Shown: in pieces, positions 12,034-23,397 of the stretch | How the letters are laid out: each line of letters begins with the position of its first letter | Numbering within the stretch: position 1 is the first letter of the stretch | DNA from: an uncultured Bacteroides sp. | GTDB taxonomy: Bacteria > Bacteroidota > Bacteroidia > Bacteroidales > Bacteroidaceae | DNA: 64,000 bases | Direction of reading: 5' to 3' | Assembly (NCBI GenBank): GCA_902388495.1 | Contig: CABMPP010000021.1 | Location: 5,412 to 69,411 of the forward strand | Translations under genes and position numbers: made by a program | The notes under the pieces: model-generated | Told to the model about the DNA's origin: nothing | Databases searched by the model: none | What the model saw: the letters and a program-made list of their open reading frames with translations, nothing else

Positions 12034-13338
12034 ATGACAAGTTTGACATTAGTCTACCGCCCTTCCACCAAAGAGGGGCATCATCCCGGGAGCCTTTCCC
12101 TGCGTATTGTCCATCACAGACGTAACAAAACCGTTATCCTTTCCGGATGCCGCATTTTCAATGAAGAATGGGACAAAGCCGGGCAGCGCCTCATTTATCC
12201 TCATAACGATCCAGCCCGTGCATCCTACCTGAGGGAAGTCGACGCACGTATCAAATCCAGTATGAATCTCCTTTCCGGTTTTATATCCGAACTTCAGAAG
12301 AAAGGGCGTTATACAGTCGAGGATATTCTCTCCCTTTTCCGTGAGAAGAAAGACGAGAACAAGTTGTCCGGCTATGCTTCCCGTCTCTCTCGCGAGTTGG
12401 AGAAGCGCGGCCAGTACCGCACTTCGCGTGCTTACCGCACCGTTGCCCGTGGTCTCGTGAAGTTCAATAAAGGTGAGGATATCCCTTTGAAGCATATTAA
12501 TGCCTGCCTTATCAAAGATTTCGAGCTTTTCTTGCGCGACAAGGGGTGTTCTCCCAATACTCTTTCGTACTACATGCGCAACCTGCGTGCTATCTATAAC
12601 AAGGCCATCGCCGAACACCGCGTCTTTCCTCATCCTGATGGTGCGCCCTTCTCCAGTGTTTTTACGGGTGTTACCAGAACGATGAAACGTGCCCTTACCG
12701 TTGATGAAGTCAAGTCTCTCCACAATCTGGATCTTTGCGGGCTCTTGCATAGTCAGCCCCCTTTCAGCCGCGAATACGAAACCCTGAAGGGACTCTATGA
12801 CGCCCAGCGTTACTTCACGTTCTGTTTTGACGCTCGTGGTATGTGCTTTGTAGACCTTGCCTATCTTTTGAAGAGTAATATTCGTGGCGGTGTCCTGCGG
12901 TATGTACGCAAGAAGACGGGCCAGCAGATCGAGGTACGGCTTACGGATGAGATGCGTGACATTATCTCGAGTTTCTCCGATGAAACCTCCTGTATCCCGT
13001 ACGTTTTCCCTATCATCCGCGATCCGGATAAAAACGCCCGCATTCAGTACGAAAACGGGCTGCGCATCCAGAATGCCCGTTTGAAGAAACTGGCCTCCCT
13101 TGCCGGAATCAAAAAGCCTCTAAGTACCCATTGGGCACGGCATTCATGGGCTAACATCGGTAAACAGGAAAATATCCCTCTGCGGGTAATCAGTGAGTGT
13201 CTGGGCCATACCTCGGAACGTACAACCTTGATTTATCTGGACCAGCTTGACAATTCCCTCCTGGATGCCGCCAATGAACGCATTACGAGCGTCATCCTAC
13301 GCCCTTCCCTTCCGAAGCGTGAAAATTCTGTGTGTTAA
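12034..13338 (+). CDS. Tyrosine recombinase, probable invertase of the adjacent switch
   Basis: A 434-residue site-specific recombinase of the Bacteroides integrase type. It has an N-terminal arm-type domain (LTLVYRPSTKEGHHPGSLSLRI), a SAM-like core-binding domain (about residues 110-205, with NTLSYYMRNLRAIYNKAI) and a catalytic domain. Catalytic residues visible are Arg268 (FDARGMCFVDL), His366-x-x-Arg369 (STHWARHSW), a second His in LGHTSERT, and the nucleophile Tyr401 (LIYLD). All are intact. It ends 72 bp before one of two perfect 27-bp inverted repeats that bound a 1,240-bp segment, so it is probably the enzyme that flips it. No excisionase, relaxase or phage genes are near, which argues against an integrated element. 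Confidence 0.93.
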   Translation: MTSLTLVYRPSTKEGHHPGSLSLRIVHHRRNKTVILSGCRIFNEEWDKAGQRLIYPHNDPARASYLREVDARIKSSMNLLSGFISELQKKGRYTVEDILSLFREKKDENKLSGYASRLSRELEKRGQYRTSRAYRTVARGLVKFNKGEDIPLKHINACLIKDFELFLRDKGCSPNTLSYYMRNLRAIYNKAIAEHRVFPHPDGAPFSSVFTGVTRTMKRALTVDEVKSLHNLDLCGLLHSQPPFSREYETLKGLYDAQRYFTFCFDARGMCFVDLAYLLKSNIRGGVLRYVRKKTGQQIEVRLTDEMRDIISSFSDETSCIPYVFPIIRDPDKNARIQYENGLRIQNARLKKLASLAGIKKPLSTHWARHSWANIGKQENIPLRVISECLGHTSERTTLIYLDQLDNSLLDAANERITSVILRPSLPKRENSVC

Positions 13339-13375: not shown

Positions 13376-13383
13376 TACCTTTG
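13376..13383 (+). promoter_or_regulatory. Promoter core facing into the invertible segment
   Basis: TACCTTTG matches the -7 consensus exactly and has the same bases as the cores before fabD and the thiamine operon. It lies between the recombinase stop and the left inverted repeat and fires rightward. In the present orientation it would make RNA antisense to the AraC-type gene. After inversion the same promoter would read that gene in the sense direction with a leader of about 265 nt. No good -33 TTTG at 19-21 bp was found. Confidence 0.5.
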
Positions 13384-13410: not shown

Positions 13411-13437
13411 ATCCGACACTTGCAAAGTGCCGGATGG
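13411..13437 (+). repeat. Left 27-bp inverted repeat of the invertible segment (IR-L)
   Basis: The 27 bases, beginning ATCCGACACTTGC and ending GTGCCGGATGG, are the exact reverse complement of 14624-14650. The repeat is itself an imperfect palindrome: two 11-bp arms (ATCCGnCACTT) face each other about a 3-bp centre, as expected for the paired binding sites of a tyrosine recombinase. Confidence 0.9.
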
Positions 13438-13466
13438 TTGCTGTTTGCCAGCATGGAAACCGTGGG

Positions 13467-13474
13467 CAAAGATA
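13467..13474 (-). promoter_or_regulatory. Promoter core inside the invertible segment (currently faces away from the pilus genes)
   Basis: The minus strand reads TATCTTTG (TAnnTTTG exact), 37 bp beyond the stop codon of the AraC-type gene and 30 bp inside IR-L. It now fires leftward, out of the segment and against the end of the recombinase gene, where nothing is encoded on that strand. After inversion it would fire rightward, with a transcript start about 87 bp before the DUF3575 gene. A TTGACA-like sequence lies 23 bp upstream; no TTTG at ideal spacing. Confidence 0.5.
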
Positions 13475-13510
13475 GGCTATAAAATCTTTTATCTGATTGT
13501 CAAAAGCCGT

Positions 13511-14404
13511 TTAATGGTTGTCAATTCTTCCCTTTGCCATTATTCCTTCCGCCCGTATATCCGTGGGTGTCTTTCCAATTTCCTTCTTACAGAACTTGGT
13601 GAATTGAGGCAGATCGCAGAAGCCATTCTCAAAAGCTATCTGTTTGATAGTCTTGTTTGCATCCAGAAGTTGGGTCTTTATCATCTTCGCCCTCTCCCGT
13701 TTCATCCATTTATAAGGTGTAGCTGCAAATATTTTCTTGAATTTCTCCGAGAACTGTCTGGTTGTCAAGTGCATATATTCTGCCATTTCCTCTACATTCT
13801 TGAATCGGTGCCACCTCATTCTTACGTATTCCGAGAACGATGTGTCCTCGCTCAGGATGAGGTACAGGAAATCATAAATATCCTCCTTTGTATAATAGAG
13901 CCTTACCAGCAGAAAGAATTCTTTGATTTTCAATTCGAAATACTCCCCACATTTCACTCCGTCATTGAGGATGTTCATCATCCCGTCCAAGAACTGCCAT
14001 ATTCTTGTATTCATTTCCATGACACTGAATCTTCTCCGTGTTTGGGAAAGGTAGAACCCCGCATTCTTCTTCTGTACCTCATATAGCTTCTCCACCGAAT
14101 AGTTTGCACACAGCACAATAGATCCTCTGATTCGGAAAACGACCATCAGCGCATTGTCTGCTGCTATATAAGAGTATCTGCCTCCTGCCGGCAGAAAGAG
14201 TATCTCTCCCTTTTTGCCTTCATAATCCGGGGCATTTTTGAATATGAAGCGTACCTGCCCCTCTATGAAGAATACTACCTCATTACTCACTGTAGCCACT
14301 TCTCCACTGTCTCCCTTTGCAATTCTTACCATTTCAATGGTCTGTTTTGCTGTCTGCTCCGAGTGTTGGCATCTCTCGTGCTCACCTTTGTATGTCAATT
14401 CCAT
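13511..14404 (-). CDS. AraC-family transcriptional regulator inside the invertible segment
   Basis: A 297-residue protein. The N-terminal half is a cupin-like sensor domain (EVVFFIEGQVRFIF then GEILFLPAGGRYSY). The C-terminal ~100 residues form the double helix-turn-helix of AraC proteins (NVEEMAEYMHLTTRQFSEKF, KTIKQIAFENGFCDLPQFTKFCKKEIGKTPTDIR). It is likely the activator of the pilus operon next door, since it is the only complete regulator in the locus. No TAnnTTTG core was found between its start and the right repeat on its own strand, so in this orientation it may be silent. A related protein without the DNA-binding half is encoded at 22843-23397. Confidence 0.9.
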   Translation of the reverse strand: MELTYKGEHERCQHSEQTAKQTIEMVRIAKGDSGEVATVSNEVVFFIEGQVRFIFKNAPDYEGKKGEILFLPAGGRYSYIAADNALMVVFRIRGSIVLCANYSVEKLYEVQKKNAGFYLSQTRRRFSVMEMNTRIWQFLDGMMNILNDGVKCGEYFELKIKEFFLLVRLYYTKEDIYDFLYLILSEDTSFSEYVRMRWHRFKNVEEMAEYMHLTTRQFSEKFKKIFAATPYKWMKRERAKMIKTQLLDANKTIKQIAFENGFCDLPQFTKFCKKEIGKTPTDIRAEGIMAKGRIDNH

Positions 14405-14423
14405 AATATATTGTTATTCAACC

Positions 14424-14552
14424 GTTTTACAAATGTTCTACATTTCTCTTTTCTTCTTGTCTTTGTCTTCTCTTTCAATTTCTTGTAAATCATCCTTTTC
14501 CACGTCATTTATTCTTTTCTGCTCCTTCCCCTTGTTTTACAAATGTTCTACA
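14424..14552 (+). repeat. Pair of 19-bp direct repeats upstream of the AraC-type gene
   Basis: GTTTTACAAATGTTCTACA occurs exactly at 14424-14442 and again at 14534-14552, 110 bp apart, in the leader of the AraC-type gene inside the invertible segment. This is about eleven helical turns less a few bases. Binding sites for the regulator itself are a reasonable guess. The reverse strand of each repeat contains AACATTTG, one base off the -7 consensus. Confidence 0.7.
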
Positions 14553-14623
14553 AGACTGTTTTGTTCACGAACGATATGCTTCTAACTTCAAGAAAATCAG
14601 CGAAAAAGAAATCTTTTTTTCGT

Positions 14624-14650
14624 CCATCCGGCACTTTGCAAGTGTCGGAT
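14624..14650 (-). repeat. Right 27-bp inverted repeat of the invertible segment (IR-R)
   Basis: The exact reverse complement of 13411-13437, with no mismatch over 27 bp. It ends 38 bp before the start codon of the DUF3575 gene, so inversion exchanges whatever lies upstream of the pilus operon. Confidence 0.9.
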
Positions 14651-14688: not shown

Positions 14689-15282
14689 ATGAGAATGATT
14701 AATGAAACATCCCGGCTCTTTGCCGTTCTTCTGTTTAGTATCCTTCTGTGCCCTTCACTAAAGGGGCAGGAGCAGAAAAGCGCCACTCCTTCCCTGTCTA
14801 TCAGCAGCAACCTTCTTTATGATGCTACTTCCAGTTTTAACCTCGGTGTAGAATTCAAGGTTGGCTCCAGACTAACTCTTGGGCTTCCCGTTAGTTACAA
14901 TCCTTTTTCTTTTTCTGATAATAAGAAATGGAAACATATTCTTTTTCAACCTGAACTCCGCCGATGGTTCTGTTCTCCTTTCTCCGGTCATTTCCTCGGA
15001 CTGCATACACATTATGGTTATTACAATGTCGGAGGTATCGGCAACCACTACATGAAAGCTAACCGTTTTCAGGGATGGCTCGTTGGCGGTGGGTTCACTT
15101 ACGGGTATCAGTTTAATATGGGCCGAAGCTGGAACCTGGAGTTATCCGCCGGTGTCGGCTACGCCTATCTCGATTATAAACGCTATTCCTGTAAGACCTG
15201 CGGGGATTACAAGGGGGATGAGCATAAGCATTATTTCGGTCCGACGAAAGCTGCCGTCTCCTTTATCTATATCATTAAATAA
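14689..15282 (+). CDS. DUF3575 family outer-membrane protein of the pilus locus
   Basis: A 197-residue protein with a cleavable signal peptide (LFAVLLFSILLCPSLKGQ, cut near residue 26) and a small beta-barrel-like body (SNLLYDATSSFNLGVEFKVGSRLTLGLPVSYNPF, GGGFTYGYQFNMGRSWNLELSAGVGYAYLDYKRY). This is the DUF3575 pattern, often found as the first gene of Bacteroidales Mfa/Fim pilus operons and thought to act in the outer membrane during pilus assembly. The start codon is 38 bp from IR-R, so its promoter must lie within or across the invertible segment. No TAnnTTTG core faces it in the present orientation. The pilin gene follows after 221 bp. Confidence 0.85.
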   Translation: MRMINETSRLFAVLLFSILLCPSLKGQEQKSATPSLSISSNLLYDATSSFNLGVEFKVGSRLTLGLPVSYNPFSFSDNKKWKHILFQPELRRWFCSPFSGHFLGLHTHYGYYNVGGIGNHYMKANRFQGWLVGGGFTYGYQFNMGRSWNLELSAGVGYAYLDYKRYSCKTCGDYKGDEHKHYFGPTKAAVSFIYIIK

Positions 15283-17923: not shown

Positions 17924-20900
17924 ATGAATAGTCTTAAAATGAAATTACTCTTTTGGCTGGTAGTGTCTGCCGCCATCTTTTCCTCGTGTTCTGCCGAGGA
18001 CGAAAATTACAGCGGTCATACCTCCGGAACGGGTAAAGAGATTGATGTGCAGGTATTGTTCCAGATGCCTGCCGCCTCACCTAAAACGCGTGCGATATCC
18101 GAGGTAGACGAAAACCTTGTCGAAGAGATTGATGTCCTGGCTTTTGAACCGGATGGTGTCGATCCTTCCAAGTGGGTCTTCTCGTACAGTGCCCAAGGAC
18201 ATACTATCCAGGATGTAGCAGAGAGTAACCCTACCAAATCAAAGAAACAGTTTACTGTAAAACTTATCAAGAGTGATGCTCCGCAGACCTTTGTCATCCT
18301 TGCCAATGTGCGTTCGGAACTTACGGCTTTGGGTGAAATCGGTAAAGGCGCCGACAAGGACGAACTGCTTGCCAGACTCCTCTACTCCAGAGCTGGCAGT
18401 TGGAATGCGAATAATGATAAGGACGAAGATGCGTCAGACAAAAACTTTGACTCCTTCCCCATGTGGGGCGAAGTTGAAGCAACCCTTACCGACGCCGTGA
18501 CCCGGATCAGTGACGTGAAGTTACTGAGAGCCATTGCCCGCTTTGATGTGGTGCTGGATAATGCCGTGGTTACAGCCGGAAATTTCACGCTGGATGAAGT
18601 TTATGTCTACAACAGCAAGAATCAGGGCCGCATTGTTCCCGAGCCTGGCAACTTGGAAAGCTTGTCGAAGGTGAAAGCAGCCACCGAACCAACCGGAAGC
18701 ATCAACAATGATACTCCGCTCTTTTATGAAGTCCCCTCTTCCATGAATACGGCGTTTGAAAGAACAATCTACCTGTTTGAAGCCAAAGGCAAGGACGAAA
18801 ACGAATCGTCGAAGGCTACTTGTGTGGTTGTTGGCGGTACGTATGGCACAGATGGTAAGACAACCTATTACCGGCTGGACTTTTTGAAGAAAGAATCTAC
18901 CGATACCTATTATCGCGATATTCTCCGTAATCATAAGTACGTGATGAATATTCAGAGTGTGACCGGCAGCGGTTACGATACTCCTGATAAAGCTTTCAAA
19001 TCCAAATCTTTCAATATGGAAGCCGAAGTTCAGGAATGGGATGATTCCGGTATGAATAATTCCATTTTCGACGGACATTACCAACTCACTGTAAACAAGG
19101 ACTCTCTCTACTTCTATAGCGAAGGCCGGGCCCGGGAGCTGAAAGTATATACGGACTATCCTGATGGCTGGACCATCGAAGACCTGCCATCCTGGCTAAC
19201 CGTAACTCCCTCAAGTGGTGCGGCAGGTGATAAGGTAGATATCCAAGTTACGGCCGATCCTCATACGATACCGATGGACGACCGTGAGTCTTATTTCTAT
19301 ATAACGGCTGGTCGGTTCAAACAGAAGATCAAGGTTGTTCAGACGGTAACGCCAGAGCTGACGATCGATGTAAACAAGAACTCACTTGTATTCCGCAAAT
19401 CGGGAAGCAGTGGCGGTAAATCCATTATTGTAACGACTTATCCCAATGATGCGAATGTCTACTTCACCGAGGTTCCGGGTAGCAATGCGATAGACTGGGC
19501 CAGCGGTGGCTTCCCGGACAGCGGGTATGCCAATATCACGACTTATGTTTTCAAGCCTGCGAAAAATGAATCGGGCTCGTCCAAAACGACTTCAGTCATA
19601 GTCTATGTAATGGGACCCGACGGTACGAGAGCTTCGAAGACAATTGATATCATGCAGCTTGCCACTGACTTGTTGTTCAATGTGACGAAACAGGATTATT
19701 ACCCTGAGACGGCAGGAACGAATACTTTCTCGGTAGATTCTGATACGGACTGGTATGTATACAGCGTAGACGATCTTGGCACCGGTGTAGTCAGTAACTG
19801 GAGCAATACAAATAACGACAAGGGAGTGACGACCTATTCATTTGACCTTACTATTAACGAGACCTGGGACAACCGTAAGGCGATATTTAAGGTTGCCTCT
19901 TCCGATCCGGACTTTGCCGGCCAGGAGATTGTGATAATCCAAGGGCATGCCAATCCTACGATCAAACTAAATGTAAATGCACTTGATTTCGGAACCTCCG
20001 GAGACTCGAAAAGCGTTACAGTGACCTCCAATGCGAAATGGAAGTATGCCGTTAGTACGGGTAACTGGGCTAATACAGTAGCTACTGCCTCTGTCGCTGC
20101 CGGAACAGAGAGCGGAAACCATACCTATCAGACTACTACCGGTACAAATACCGTGACATTTACCCCTAAAGCATGGACTGCAGCTGCGGGTACGCCTGCG
20201 TCAGGAAACACTACGGCAGTGGGGCTCCAGTTTACGACTACGGACCACGACCCTGCCACGGCATCTACAGCCAACTTGACTATCAACCGGACGGTTCCTG
20301 CATTCTTCACACTGAATACCGGCAATACGAGTGCTGCCCGTGCAGGACAGAATATCGCAGTTAATGTCAGTACAAATGCGGCATGGAATGCTACTTCTAC
20401 TGCCGGAACGTCGATTGCTGCTCAAGCTCCGGCGGCGTATGGCACCAGATCGGTGAATATCAATATTCCGGCTAATACGACTTGGGCCAGTAGGACTGTT
20501 ACGGTATCAACAAAATATGGTATCAACACTTCGTCCATATCCACAGCCAAAGGTTCGTTTGCAGTGACACAAACAGGATACTATATTTCTGCAGCTTCAC
20601 GAAATTTTGCCCCTTCTCCGTCAGTAGCTACAAATGCTAATATCACATTGACCGGTGCTTATCCACAAATGAATGTGCGAGTTTTGAACGTAACGGCCAA
20701 TGCCCAACTTGCGGCTACAACTATTGCAGCTCGGGAAAGTGGTGCGGGGACTTCAAATAATATTTCTGTTGCAGCAAACGCAACTTGGGCGAATCGTGTG
20801 CTACGAATACAGTACCAACATCCTGTAAACGGATGGACTCCTGTTGGAGGAGATGTGACTCAAGAGGGATATTCGACTACTGGACTTTCTCGTGATAATG

Positions 20901-21553
20901 TAACGCCTATAGGTGGTGGGTTTGTAATAACTGTTAGAGCTCAATCCTATCTTCCCAACCTTCAATTGAGGGCAATTTCAGGCGGTACTGTTGTTAGTAC
21001 AACTCAACCGACAATTGCTGGCGGTACAACGAACTTACGAACGCAAACGCTGACAATAGGAAACAATCCTCCTCCTGGTGCACGTGAGGTACAGGTGCAA
21101 TATTATCATCCGATATATGGGTGGACTAATTTAGGAAGTCCTTTTGTGCAGCCCGAAGGAAATTATGTACTTACTACAGGGCGTATAGTCGCTTTGCAAG
21201 ATATTCCCAGTATGTATGGTAGCGCAACAATGACATGGACTGATGCAATGGGAATTCCTGCAGAGTATACTTATAAATTATTTGGAGGGGGTATGTATTA
21301 TACACCGAACATGCCAACTGGTTGCGGGAGCTATTCAGAGCCTGGATATCCTGCAGGGACTTGGCGTCTCCCTACGATTGATGAAGTAGACGAAATAGCT
21401 GCGAATAATTGGGCTTCAGTAGCTGCAAGCAAGGGATACTGGAGTTGTACTGAAGATGGACCTTCTGACGGTGCCGCACGTGCACGCGGAATTAACGGAG
21501 GTAGAGTTAGCAAAAACGGGACATACTTTGTAAGATGTGTACGTTGGCCATGA
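17924..21553 (+). CDS. Large tip-like pilus protein with DUF4906-type N-terminus, BACON-like repeats and a lectin-like end
   Basis: A 1,209-residue lipoprotein (LLFWLVVSAAIFSSC, Cys22). Residues ~40-370 form a pilin-like DUF4906 region (Arg56 before EEIDVLAFEPDG). At least five BACON-like Ig domains follow (LTVNKDSLYFYSEGRA; LTIDVNKNSLVFRKSG; LLFNVTKQDYYPETAG; IKLNVNALDFGTSG; FFTLNTGNTSAARAG). Next come two similar ~90-residue units that share the core QY-x-HP-x-x-GWT (VLRIQYQHPVNGWTPVG; EVQVQYYHPIYGWTNLG). The last ~110 residues (GTWRLPTIDEVDEI, GYWSCTED, YFVRCVRWP) resemble DUF1566/C-type-lectin-like folds. Such a modular end suits a ligand-binding adhesin at the pilus tip. From about 20580 on the DNA looks more A/T-rich than before. 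No function was assigned to the end domain beyond fold resemblance. Confidence 0.8.
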   Translation: MNSLKMKLLFWLVVSAAIFSSCSAEDENYSGHTSGTGKEIDVQVLFQMPAASPKTRAISEVDENLVEEIDVLAFEPDGVDPSKWVFSYSAQGHTIQDVAESNPTKSKKQFTVKLIKSDAPQTFVILANVRSELTALGEIGKGADKDELLARLLYSRAGSWNANNDKDEDASDKNFDSFPMWGEVEATLTDAVTRISDVKLLRAIARFDVVLDNAVVTAGNFTLDEVYVYNSKNQGRIVPEPGNLESLSKVKAATEPTGSINNDTPLFYEVPSSMNTAFERTIYLFEAKGKDENESSKATCVVVGGTYGTDGKTTYYRLDFLKKESTDTYYRDILRNHKYVMNIQSVTGSGYDTPDKAFKSKSFNMEAEVQEWDDSGMNNSIFDGHYQLTVNKDSLYFYSEGRARELKVYTDYPDGWTIEDLPSWLTVTPSSGAAGDKVDIQVTADPHTIPMDDRESYFYITAGRFKQKIKVVQTVTPELTIDVNKNSLVFRKSGSSGGKSIIVTTYPNDANVYFTEVPGSNAIDWASGGFPDSGYANITTYVFKPAKNESGSSKTTSVIVYVMGPDGTRASKTIDIMQLATDLLFNVTKQDYYPETAGTNTFSVDSDTDWYVYSVDDLGTGVVSNWSNTNNDKGVTTYSFDLTINETWDNRKAIFKVASSDPDFAGQEIVIIQGHANPTIKLNVNALDFGTSGDSKSVTVTSNAKWKYAVSTGNWANTVATASVAAGTESGNHTYQTTTGTNTVTFTPKAWTAAAGTPASGNTTAVGLQFTTTDHDPATASTANLTINRTVPAFFTLNTGNTSAARAGQNIAVNVSTNAAWNATSTAGTSIAAQAPAAYGTRSVNINIPANTTWASRTVTVSTKYGINTSSISTAKGSFAVTQTGYYISAASRNFAPSPSVATNANITLTGAYPQMNVRVLNVTANAQLAATTIAARESGAGTSNNISVAANATWANRVLRIQYQHPVNGWTPVGGDVTQEGYSTTGLSRDNVTPIGGGFVITVRAQSYLPNLQLRAISGGTVVSTTQPTIAGGTTNLRTQTLTIGNNPPPGAREVQVQYYHPIYGWTNLGSPFVQPEGNYVLTTGRIVALQDIPSMYGSATMTWTDAMGIPAEYTYKLFGGGMYYTPNMPTGCGSYSEPGYPAGTWRLPTIDEVDEIAANNWASVAASKGYWSCTEDGPSDGAARARGINGGRVSKNGTYFVRCVRWP

Positions 21554-21664
21554 CGACATTATGATATGGAGCAAATTTTTTAATTGCAAAGTATAAGAAA
21601 CAAGTGTAAACCTGCTTAATATAAGTGATCAGTGTTTATTTGTCTCTCCTTAAAAACAATAAGA

Positions 21665-22825
21665 ATGAAGGAAAATAATATATATACATTAGCAATCTGT
21701 CCATTTTCCTATATACTTTTTTTATGGATATACCTATCGCTGGCAGCCTGCGATAATTATCACGTATTAGAAGCCAAAAACACTCCTATACGAACAATCT
21801 TGTTTTATATGGGTGGTGACAACAATCTTTCATCAGAAGTAAATTCAAAGATTGAGCAACTGAAAAGCGTAAAGATTTCGCCTTACAGCCGTGTATTGAT
21901 ATACACAGATACTAAAGACGACTTTCCGCAGCTTTTAGAAATCTCTACAACTTCAGGAGGTAATATCTTAAAGACTTTACGTGAATATCCGGAGAGCAAC
22001 TCTGCAGATGCAGAAATCTTTTCTTCCGTATTGTCTGAAATCAGGGAGCATTACCCGTCTTCTTCATACGGACTGGTATTGTTTTCCCACGCTACGGGAT
22101 GGCTACCGGAAGGTACTTATAATAATCCTTCCAGCAGTTCCCGAAACTTCGAAAGTCGTTCGATACTTTTAGATGGTAATTCCGAAATGGAGATTCCCGC
22201 TTTTGCTGCTGCAATCCCCGACGGTATGTTCGATTTCATTGTCTTTGAAGCTTGCTACATGGCAAGTGTTGAAGTTGCTTATGAACTGAAAGACAAAGCG
22301 CGCTCTATCGTTGCCTCTTCAGCCGAGATCGTATCGCCGGGGCTCTCCCGCTGTTATGCCGAAGCCCTGCCCCTGCTCTATCAGCAGAAGGTGGATCTTC
22401 AAGGCTTCTGTCGAGCTATCGAGAAAGATTATGCCACCCGCCCGGATGACTATTCATCGCTCACTTTGAGTTTGATAGATACCAAAGGATTGGATGCTCT
22501 TGCCTCCATCGTTCGGGAATCGAGTTCCTCTTTTCCCAATAATGGAGTTGGCATTCAGACCTTCGACAGGGGTAGCGGTACTCTGTTTTTCGATTTGGAA
22601 GATTGCTATTCGAAATCAGTGAAACAACAAGCCGCAATCCGAACAGCTATCAAAGACTGTGTAAAGTGGAAGACAGCTACACCAGCCTTTATGCCAACCT
22701 ACGGTGGCTTTAATATACGGGCGCATTGCGGTTTGACTACTTACATTCCACAGCAAGATTATAACCGTTTAAACGACGTTTACAAAGAATTTAAATGGTA
22801 TAAATCAATAACCCATAAACATTAA
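21665..22825 (+). CDS. C11-family (clostripain-related) cysteine protease lipoprotein
   Basis: A 386-residue protein with lipoprotein signal ILFLWIYLSLAAC. The C11 core starts at TPIRTILFYMGGDNNLSSEV. The catalytic His is in LVLFSHATGW and the catalytic Cys in FIVFEACYMASVEVAYEL. The in-frame GTG at 21632 is too far upstream; the ATG at 21665 starts just before the signal peptide. Clostripain-type proteases typically cut after Arg. Co-transcription with pilins that carry a conserved Arg at their maturation position suggests it processes them at the cell surface, as gingipain does in Porphyromonas. That role is inferred. It lies 111 bp after the tip-like gene. Confidence 0.85.
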   Translation: MKENNIYTLAICPFSYILFLWIYLSLAACDNYHVLEAKNTPIRTILFYMGGDNNLSSEVNSKIEQLKSVKISPYSRVLIYTDTKDDFPQLLEISTTSGGNILKTLREYPESNSADAEIFSSVLSEIREHYPSSSYGLVLFSHATGWLPEGTYNNPSSSSRNFESRSILLDGNSEMEIPAFAAAIPDGMFDFIVFEACYMASVEVAYELKDKARSIVASSAEIVSPGLSRCYAEALPLLYQQKVDLQGFCRAIEKDYATRPDDYSSLTLSLIDTKGLDALASIVRESSSSFPNNGVGIQTFDRGSGTLFFDLEDCYSKSVKQQAAIRTAIKDCVKWKTATPAFMPTYGGFNIRAHCGLTTYIPQQDYNRLNDVYKEFKWYKSITHKH

Positions 22826-22842
22826 TTTGAAAGGAATACATT

Positions 22843-23397
22843 ATGAATACAGATATGACAGATAACAATGCCGAATTGTCTTGGTTGCTACAACAGTTAC
22901 TACCCTCTTTTAAAGCTCATCAGGAGACTATGAAAGGAGTGCTTTATAATGAGCTCCGGCAAGGATGCATCGAAGACCTGGCAAGCAACAGCAACTACCG
23001 TCTGCTCTTTCTAATGGAAGGCAAGGTGTTTTTGAGAAATGAAGGCATGGAGAAATACTTGCTGTATGGTGGCAATTTCTCGTTGCTTCCACCGGACTGC
23101 CCGATCAGCTGCGCGTCATTGACCCGGTCGCGCTATCTGATTGTAACTTGTACCGGTCTGAGCAGTACCGGTAATCAGTCTTTTATGGAAGAACTGAGAA
23201 ATGCCTCCTGCAGCTCCCTTGCGTCCGTAACTTCATTACCTATTCGAGAGCAGCTTGATACAATACTGTACAACTTTGCTACCTATACTTGCAATGAGTA
23301 TCAATATCCGGATATTTATGATACTTTGTTTGTCATTTTGCGAATTTTATATACACCTGAGGAATTGGTATCGTTGTTGTCTCCCATGCTGCAATGA
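22843..23397 (+). CDS. HTH-less relative of the AraC-type regulator (sensor domain only)
   Basis: A 184-residue protein that matches only the N-terminal half of AraC-type regulators. The cupin-like part GKVFLRNEG...LLYGGNFSLLPPDCPIS corresponds to GQVRFIF...KGEILFLPAGGRYS of the regulator in the invertible segment. The end DTLFVILRILYTPEELVSLLSPML corresponds to the stretch just before that regulator's DNA-binding domain. The stop falls where the helix-turn-helix would begin, and no HTH coding is seen downstream. The gene starts 17 bp after the protease gene and has a good reading frame, so it looks maintained. It may act as a partner or inhibitor of the full-length regulator; this is inference. 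Confidence 0.75.
   Translation: MNTDMTDNNAELSWLLQQLLPSFKAHQETMKGVLYNELRQGCIEDLASNSNYRLLFLMEGKVFLRNEGMEKYLLYGGNFSLLPPDCPISCASLTRSRYLIVTCTGLSSTGNQSFMEELRNASCSSLASVTSLPIREQLDTILYNFATYTCNEYQYPDIYDTLFVILRILYTPEELVSLLSPMLQ

What the first reader, a model, noticed from the sequence alone, without database searches (positions are those of the whole stretch)
13411..14650. A regulator gene on an invertible segment, next to a recombinase and a pilus operon
Seen: two perfect 27-bp inverted repeats (13411-13437 and 14624-14650) bound 1,240 bp that holds one AraC-type gene. A complete tyrosine recombinase gene ends 72 bp outside one end, and the pilus operon starts 38 bp outside the other. Known: Bacteroides use tyrosine recombinases to flip promoters of surface structures. 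Inference: here the flipped unit carries a whole regulator gene as well as a promoter, so one event could switch both the activator and its target.
Basis: partly seen in the sequence, partly recalled or inferred. Interest (0 to 1): 0.92.

Follow-up and report, generated by a model that had tools for sequence, protein, structure and literature searches.

The report
Invertible cassette carrying a pilus activator
A gut-type bacterium appears to carry a flippable 1.2 kb DNA cassette that holds both the gene for a pilus activator and the pilus promoter, so a single flip could connect or disconnect both at once; the sequence shown looks like the OFF position.

Summary
I found 11 further elements (12 in all; L099 has a decayed second site). 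In 11 of 11 intact site pairs the central triplet agrees between copies while varying between elements, as expected of crossover sites. In one element (L005) the cassette lies the other way round. Comparison suggests a two-contact switch. A promoter box outside the recombinase-side site points into the cassette (12/12). A box just 3' of araC points out (11/12), with an AraC-like operator in 9/12. The same operator-promoter lies between araC and fimbrial genes, aimed at them, in four non-invertible relatives not used to derive it. Flipping the window cassette in silico recreates that layout; as sequenced, the promoter points away. I predict that regulator and pilus are OFF here and ON after inversion. 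Not shown: inversion in any strain, transcription, AraC binding. 11 of 12 elements lie in the predicted OFF orientation. New variant of a known kind.

The parts
12034..13338 (+). tyrosine recombinase (434 aa); presumed catalytic R268, K294, H366, R369, H392, Y401 present
   Evidence: Pfam Phage_int_SAM_5 and Phage_integrase above cut-off, Arm-DNA-bind_5 just below; match to IntI4/XerA structures over residues 325-413; R268, K294, R369, H392, Y401 invariant in the alignment of 6 recombinases, H366 is Y in L012. Catalytic roles recalled.
13376..13383 (+). Pf: fixed outer promoter -7 box TACCTTTG pointing into the segment
   Evidence: perfect TAnnTTTG starting 36-48 bp before the site in 12 of 12 elements; chance 0.0066 per element
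13411..13437 (.). left inverted repeat; 23-bp site core 13412-13434, triplet GCA
13467..13523 (-). Pi: operator-promoter TGNNAA-N15-TGNNAA-N22-TANNTTTG (-7 box 13467-13474), overlapping the araC stop; points out through the left site
   Evidence: zero-mismatch also in fixed relatives L002, L003, L004, L034 and in the four later elements L098-L101
13511..14404 (-). araC-type regulator gene (297 aa), intact
   Evidence: Pfam HTH_18 65 bits, HTH_AraC; 82 relatives at E <= 0.001
14424..14442 (+). box 1, GTTTTACAAATGTTCTACA
14534..14552 (+). box 2, same sequence; its start lies 91-95 bp from the adjacent site in 10 of 11 measured elements, 83 bp in L101
14624..14650 (.). right inverted repeat; site core 14627-14649
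14689..15282 (+). first gene of the pilus operon, DUF3575
   Evidence: Pfam DUF3575 236 bits
15504..16889 (+). stalk pilin, Fimbrillin_C
   Evidence: Pfam 49.7 bits
16987..17898 (+). Mfa2-type anchor pilin
   Evidence: Pfam 148.1 bits
17924..21553 (+). large lipoprotein-like protein, candidate tip pilin (by position and size; inference)
   Evidence: Lcl_C below cut-off
21632..22825 (+). clostripain-family peptidase
   Evidence: Pfam Peptidase_C11 104.7 bits

Best explanation
The segment is a site-specific inversion cassette moved by the adjacent tyrosine recombinase. It carries a whole activator gene (araC) and, just behind that gene, the promoter and operator through which the activator is presumed to drive the pilus. 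One inversion makes or breaks two contacts at once. In the flipped state, a fixed promoter beside the recombinase (Pf) reads into araC, and the cassette's own promoter (Pi) reads into the pilus operon, recreating the araC-promoter-pilus order of non-invertible relatives. In the sequenced state, Pf reads antisense to araC and Pi reads away from the pilus toward the recombinase 3' end, so both should be OFF. Shown (sequence comparison): sites, conserved boxes, operator motif, orientation difference, fixed-relative layout. Inferred: inversion in this strain, promoter activity, AraC acting at Pi, OFF/ON assignment.
For: (1) Central triplet equal (in inverted sense) in 11 of 11 intact site pairs although it differs between elements; the pattern used to find the sites fixes the ten bases around the triplet (in the later four allowing T/C and A/G at its edges) but leaves the triplet free; outer arms carry 0-3 differences. 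The one non-element locus with two pattern hits, L066, has unequal triplets. (2) L005 has araC in the opposite orientation relative to recombinase and Pf, with box 2 still 94 bp from the araC-upstream site. (3) Pf in 12 of 12, Pi -7 box in 11 of 12; no perfect TAnnTTTG toward the pilus within 240 bp inside or about 110 bp outside the pilus-side site, in 8 elements and 3 more (L099 not tested). (4) Operator TGNNAA-N15-TGNNAA-N22-TANNTTTG read from 7 elements (14 upstream columns conserved in at least 6 of 7; random registers mean 1.9, max 8 in 5000). Zero-mismatch hits in 9 non-redundant loci, all within 180 bp 3' of araC: five of those 7 elements, and fixed relatives L002, L003, L004, L034, which were not used to derive it; block shuffles gave 1 zero-mismatch hit in three passes over 456 kb. 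The later elements L098-L101 match 4 of 4. (5) Of 56 site-free araC loci listed, 17 non-duplicate ones have a recognisable fimbrial gene; in 16 of 17 the nearest is downstream and codirectional, the exception being L014. (6) In silico flip: Pi to first pilus ATG 94 nt; L002-L004 118, 116 and 74 nt. (7) L004, with a recombinase-like fragment 2.8 kb upstream and no sites, falls inside a 29-row set with the window AraC (SH-aLRT 99, quick tree), as expected of a switch frozen in the predicted ON layout.
Against: No reads were available, so inversion is not observed within any strain. 11 of 12 elements are in the window orientation. L005, the one flipped case, is a metagenome-assembled contig, lacks Pi, and has an Mfa2-type gene but no other recognised fimbrial gene downstream. 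L001 has no recognisable fimbrial gene. L012 matches Pi only at the -7 box and L006 with two mismatches. L008, L100 and L101 have no recombinase hit in the DNA fetched beside them; L099 has a decayed site; araC is frameshifted in L012 and L013. Leader lengths vary: 21-400 nt over 12 fixed loci, and 95-515 nt for the six other elements (in L008 and L013 the first ORF is unsure). Pf and Pi are motifs only; -33 boxes are poor. One terminator-like hairpin, no more than chance (shuffles 1.4), lies between Pf and the pilus, so Pf could read through in the present state. L006 also has a perfect box inside the recombinase-side end that points toward the pilus. Elements are related, and L098-L101 share one genome, so counts are not independent.
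Confidence: 0.72

Rival explanations
1. The present orientation is ON: AraC activates a promoter in the 220 bp between araC and the right site that reads into the pilus, and flipping turns it off.
For: TTTG-N19-TAACTTCA at 14560-14590 in the right place; box 2, with AraC-like spaced half-sites, lies next to it; 11 of 12 elements are in this orientation.
Against: No perfect TAnnTTTG toward the pilus near the pilus-side site in the 8 elements nor the 3 testable ones; downstream of box 2 only two isolated T columns reach 7 of 8; the divergent layout is seen in 1 of 17 site-free loci, L014.
Confidence: 0.14
2. An ordinary invertible promoter in which the araC gene is a passenger and does not control the pilus.
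For: DNA inversions affecting surface loci, including a phase-variable pilus-like locus, are known in Bacteroides (PMC12632263, sections 11 and 14 read); araC is frameshifted in L012 and L013.
Against: An araC gene is present in all 12 elements; direct-repeat operator at Pi shared with fixed relatives; araC sits upstream of and codirectional with fimbrial genes in 16 of 17 site-free loci.
Confidence: 0.1
3. The repeats are static regulatory palindromes or terminators and the segment does not invert.
For: Each arm is a palindrome; 11 of 12 elements share one orientation.
Against: Central triplets agree within pairs but vary between elements; a related recombinase lies beside 9 of 12 elements; L005 is in the other orientation; no T-run follows the hairpins.
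Confidence: 0.06

Closest known systems
B. fragilis tyrosine-recombinase switch at a phase-variable pilus-like surface locus (Weinacht et al. 2004, cited in PMC12632263; original not read)
   Same: tyrosine recombinase, DNA inversion, pilus-type target
   Different: as I recall it that segment is a promoter without a regulator gene; here the segment holds a complete activator gene and its presumed target promoter, and a second promoter box lies fixed outside
IVp-I/IVp-II invertible promoters of B. fragilis (PMC4747536, passages read)
   Same: Bacteroides -7 box TAnnTTTG inside an invertible segment upstream of surface genes
   Different: described there as invertible promoters; two unlinked inversions together set output, whereas here one inversion would set regulator and target together
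E. coli fimS switch (FimB/FimE; abstracts in the listing, otherwise recalled)
   Same: tyrosine recombinase flips a pilus promoter
   Different: 314 bp promoter segment; no regulator gene on it (recalled); unrelated pilus type
Salmonella hin/H2 segment (recalled)
   Same: invertible segment that carries a gene and an outward promoter
   Different: serine recombinase; the carried gene is the recombinase, not the activator of the target

Membership tests
tyrosine-recombinase invertible DNA switch of Bacteroidota | recombinase with catalytic R-K-H-R-H-Y | tested here: met
   window protein has all six by alignment and Pfam; roles recalled
tyrosine-recombinase invertible DNA switch of Bacteroidota | paired inverted repeats with identical crossover core | tested here: met
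   11 of 11 intact pairs; L099 has lost one site
tyrosine-recombinase invertible DNA switch of Bacteroidota | promoter on the segment whose direction relative to the target changes on inversion | tested here: met
   by sequence only:
tyrosine-recombinase invertible DNA switch of Bacteroidota | both orientations present in one population | not testable with these tools
   no reads; across genomes 1 of 12 flipped
invertible promoter in the narrow sense (segment without a gene) | no coding sequence on the segment | tested here: not met
   whole araC gene inside
type V pilus locus | stalk and anchor pilins with a clostripain-type peptidase | tested here: met
   Fimbrillin_C, Mfa2, Peptidase_C11; tip pilin by position only
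AraC/XylS regulators | C-terminal AraC-type HTH domain | tested here: met
   HTH_18 and HTH_AraC above cut-off
AraC/XylS regulators | N-terminal cupin-like sensing domain | tested here: inconclusive
   Cupin_2 20.4 bits against cut-off 27.2

The most novel reading that the evidence does not exclude
The cassette is a genetic double-pole switch that has spread as a module: one recombinase serves several pilus loci in a genome (G1086 has four elements, two with no recombinase found beside them and three with the same crossover core), so activator cassettes can flip in trans and perhaps be exchanged between pilus operons. The paired boxes, box 2 at a nearly fixed distance from one site, would be arm-type sites of the recombinase that bias its direction.
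Probability: 0.25. Interest if true: 0.85.

Novelty: new variant of a known kind. Interest (0 to 1): 0.72.

Why it matters
The DNA switches I found described flip a promoter in front of a target, move genes into an expression site, or alter a gene from within. Here one flip would close or open a whole feed-forward circuit: it joins the activator gene to a promoter and the activator's target promoter to its operon. That should give a tight OFF state, and it makes a direct prediction (orientation sets araC and pilus RNA together). [quoted passage not shown]

Tried and rejected
Search of the window's own genome: none is held. Scan of viral contigs for the regulator: no relative. Site pattern over 393 Bacteroidales genomes with up to 2 mismatches: 6 genomes with hits; in the 8 stretches (1.6-3 kb) around them no relative of araC or recombinase was found, so I treat them as chance. 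That search also returned nothing for G005, which does have an element with more divergent sites, so the pattern under-counts. AraC-profile searches covered 123, 399 (of a larger family), 101, 56 and 158 genomes; elements came from G005, G006, G007, G004, G002 and G1086, and G001 through. I first read the boxes GTTTTACAAATGTTNNACA as AraC operators. They are absent (up to 4 mismatches, 400 bp upstream) from fixed relatives L002-L004, which keep a 48-51% identical AraC and the Pi operator, so I now favour a recombination role. But L014 keeps the box near araC while box 2 is not found and its site is degenerate, and L099 keeps a single box that could be either, so this stays open. The 20-nt complementarity 14514-14533/14761-14780 has no counterpart in the seven other elements tested. 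Paper searches for a regulator inside an invertible Bacteroides segment listed none that I could recognise as describing one from title, abstract start and the passages I read; the library holds open-licence papers only. I saw passages or short sections of six papers, none whole. PMC10939037 (passage) mentions intragenic inversions in regulatory genes, and PMC11892184 (passage) fimbrillin genes near invertons; neither passage describes this layout.

Full report
Observation. The 27-bp arms are perfect inverse copies and, among repeats with arms up to 6 kb apart, form the longest widely spaced one in the window. Inside lies one intact araC-type gene on the minus strand; outside lie a tyrosine recombinase (72 bp away) and a pilus operon of DUF3575, fimbrillin, Mfa2 anchor, a large lipoprotein-like protein and a clostripain-type peptidase. 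The window's own genome is not held. Its IleRS is 84, 83 and 81% identical to those of G472, G448 and G007, the best of 13 genomes compared, which points to a Bacteroides-like genome.

Relatives. A profile of 28 AraC sequences (window and 27 relatives) found 16 loci in named genomes. Seven of these (L001, L005, L006, L007, L008, L012, L013) have the same element: two sites of the form CCGRCACTT-NNN-AAGTGYCGG (arms degenerate in some) around the regulator, with a related recombinase beside six of them (54-58% identical in five; in two pieces in L013). A later genus-level search found four more elements in one genome, G1086 (L098-L101; recombinase beside two, 53 and 55% identical). That makes 12 with the window. 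In the seven genomes of the first set scanned with up to 3 mismatches, sites with 0-1 mismatch occur only as element pairs (G001, G002, G004, G007, and two pairs in G006). G005's own pair is more degenerate (one copy at 3 mismatches, the other beyond). One further hit at 3 mismatches turned up in each of G002 to G006; the backward control pattern gave 0, 0, 0, 2 and 1 there and 1 in G007. G003 (genome of fixed relative L004) has only such a stray hit.

Are the repeats crossover sites? In 11 of 11 intact pairs the central triplet is the same in both copies, in inverted sense, while it differs between elements; the outer arms carry 0-3 differences. The search pattern fixes the bases next to the triplet but not the triplet. 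A stray locus with two pattern hits, L066, has unequal triplets. This is what a recombinase needing identical overlap sequence would preserve. The recombinase keeps the presumed catalytic residues (roles recalled). In L005 the cassette is turned round relative to recombinase and outer promoter, with its internal landmark (box 2) still 94 bp from the same cassette end. The other 11 share the window orientation (by recombinase and/or pilus side; L101's pilus side rests on my reading of the DUF3575-like start). That fits a bias to one state but gives no support for frequent switching.

Promoters. TAnnTTTG is given as the Bacteroides -7 consensus in PMC4747536 (passage). A perfect copy lies just outside the recombinase-side site, pointing inward, in 12 of 12 elements (Pf), and one lies just 3' of araC, pointing outward, in 11 of 12 (Pi; absent in L005). 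Chance of such a box in a 13-bp stretch of this DNA is 0.0066 (related elements are not independent). Good -33 boxes are mostly absent. Near the pilus-side site no perfect copy points into the pilus in the present orientation: none in the 8 elements (240 bp inside, about 110 bp outside), none in the 3 testable. On the opposite strand, 3 of the 8 (L001, L006, L012) have a perfect copy upstream of araC that could serve araC itself; the window has none.

Operator. Anchored on Pi, seven elements show 14 upstream columns conserved in at least 6 of 7 (random registers: mean 1.9, maximum 8 in 5000; two of the seven, L008 and L013, are close copies). The pattern is a direct repeat 21 bp apart ending 22 bp before the -7 box, a layout typical of AraC-activated promoters (recalled). 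As a motif it hits without mismatch in nine non-redundant loci, all within 180 bp 3' of araC: five elements and four fixed relatives (L002, L003, L004, L034) that played no part in finding it. Block shuffles gave one such hit in three passes over 456 kb. The four G1086 elements, found later, all match without mismatch. So 9 of 12 elements match fully; L006 matches with two mismatches, L012 only at the -7 box, L005 not at all.

Fixed relatives give the direction. Of 56 site-free araC loci listed, 17 non-duplicate ones have a recognisable fimbrial gene on the stretch held. In 16 the nearest one is downstream of araC and codirectional, and 14 of these 16 have a TAnnTTTG within 500 bp after araC. 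The exception L014 has a degenerate site and one box, so it looks like a decayed element. Flipping the window segment in silico gives the common layout: Pf 273 nt before araC, Pi 94 nt before the first pilus ATG. Fixed relatives L002-L004 have 118, 116 and 74 nt; over all 12 fixed loci measured the range is 21-400 nt, and for the other elements 95-142 nt in L006, L007 and L012, 232 in L001, and 503 and 515 in L008 and L013 where the first ORF is unsure. L004 has a recombinase-like fragment (about 100 residues, 2.8 kb upstream, no long ORF), no sites, and Pi facing the pilus, and falls inside a 29-row set with the window (SH-aLRT 99 in a quick tree): the look of a switch frozen ON. In the present window Pi faces the recombinase 3' end and Pf runs antisense to araC, so I predict OFF for both.

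Boxes. The 11 elements with both sites have two copies of GTTTTACAAATGTTNNACA between araC and the adjacent site (weak, 4 mismatches, in L008 and L013); the window has no other copy at up to 3 mismatches. Box 2 starts 91-95 bp from the site in 10 of 11 and 83 bp in L101, about one helical turn less; box 1 lies another 109-124 bp away. The boxes are missing in fixed relatives L002-L004. This suggests arm-type or enhancer sites for recombination. L099, whose second site is decayed (5 mismatches at 521-543), has a single box, 32 bp before araC like box 1 elsewhere and about 95 bp from the site remnant like box 2, as if the DNA between the two boxes had been deleted; L014 keeps only the box near araC. 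A role in araC regulation is therefore not excluded.

Against the reading. No reads, no transcripts. L005, the one flipped case, is a metagenome contig, lacks Pi, and is followed by an Mfa2-type gene but no other recognised fimbrial gene. L001 has no recognised fimbrial gene. L008, L100 and L101 show no recombinase in the DNA fetched beside them; L099 has a decayed site; araC is frameshifted in L012 and L013. One terminator-like hairpin, no more than chance, lies between Pf and the pilus, so read-through from Pf in the present state is possible. Confidence by step (judgement): sites are recombination sites 0.93; the cassette inverts 0.88; the present state is OFF 0.75; Pf drives araC when flipped 0.65.

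Known and new. [quoted passage not shown] I recognised no description of an activator travelling with its own target promoter on an invertible segment in the searches named in Tried and rejected, over an open-licence library only. I call it a new variant of a known kind.

Noticed in passing
window 22843-23397 (+): Last gene of the pilus operon is a 184 aa protein resembling the N-terminal domain of the AraC relatives but ending before the HTH (hhalign E 9e-5, probability 60%). Possibly a partner or brake of the activator.
   Followed up: partly
L098, L099, L100, L101 (one genome, G1086): Four elements in one genome; L100 and L101 have no recombinase hit in the DNA fetched and share 50 bp of identical outer flank including Pf; L099, L100 and L101 have the same crossover core (CACTTGCAGAGTG). 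Cassettes may be served in trans or exchanged.
   Followed up: partly
L099:521-543 and 620-638: Pilus-side site decayed (5 mismatches) and a single box left: a switch apparently locked in the predicted OFF state.
   Followed up: yes
window 14514-14533 and 14761-14780: 20-nt sequence in the araC leader, 95% complementary to the start of the DUF3575 coding region; no counterpart in the seven other elements tested.
   Followed up: partly
L012, L013: araC carries a frameshift in both metagenome-assembled loci, and in L013 the recombinase too; decay or assembly error.
   Followed up: no
L039:1384-1401 and 2563-2580: An 18-bp inverted repeat of different sequence (TATGTAGTTGTCGGACAC) flanks a distant AraC gene: possibly another invertible family.
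   Followed up: no
window 17924-21553: Candidate tip protein ends in a weak Lcl_C-like domain, a fold I recall from variable, ligand-binding tips; no retroelement was looked for.
   Followed up: no
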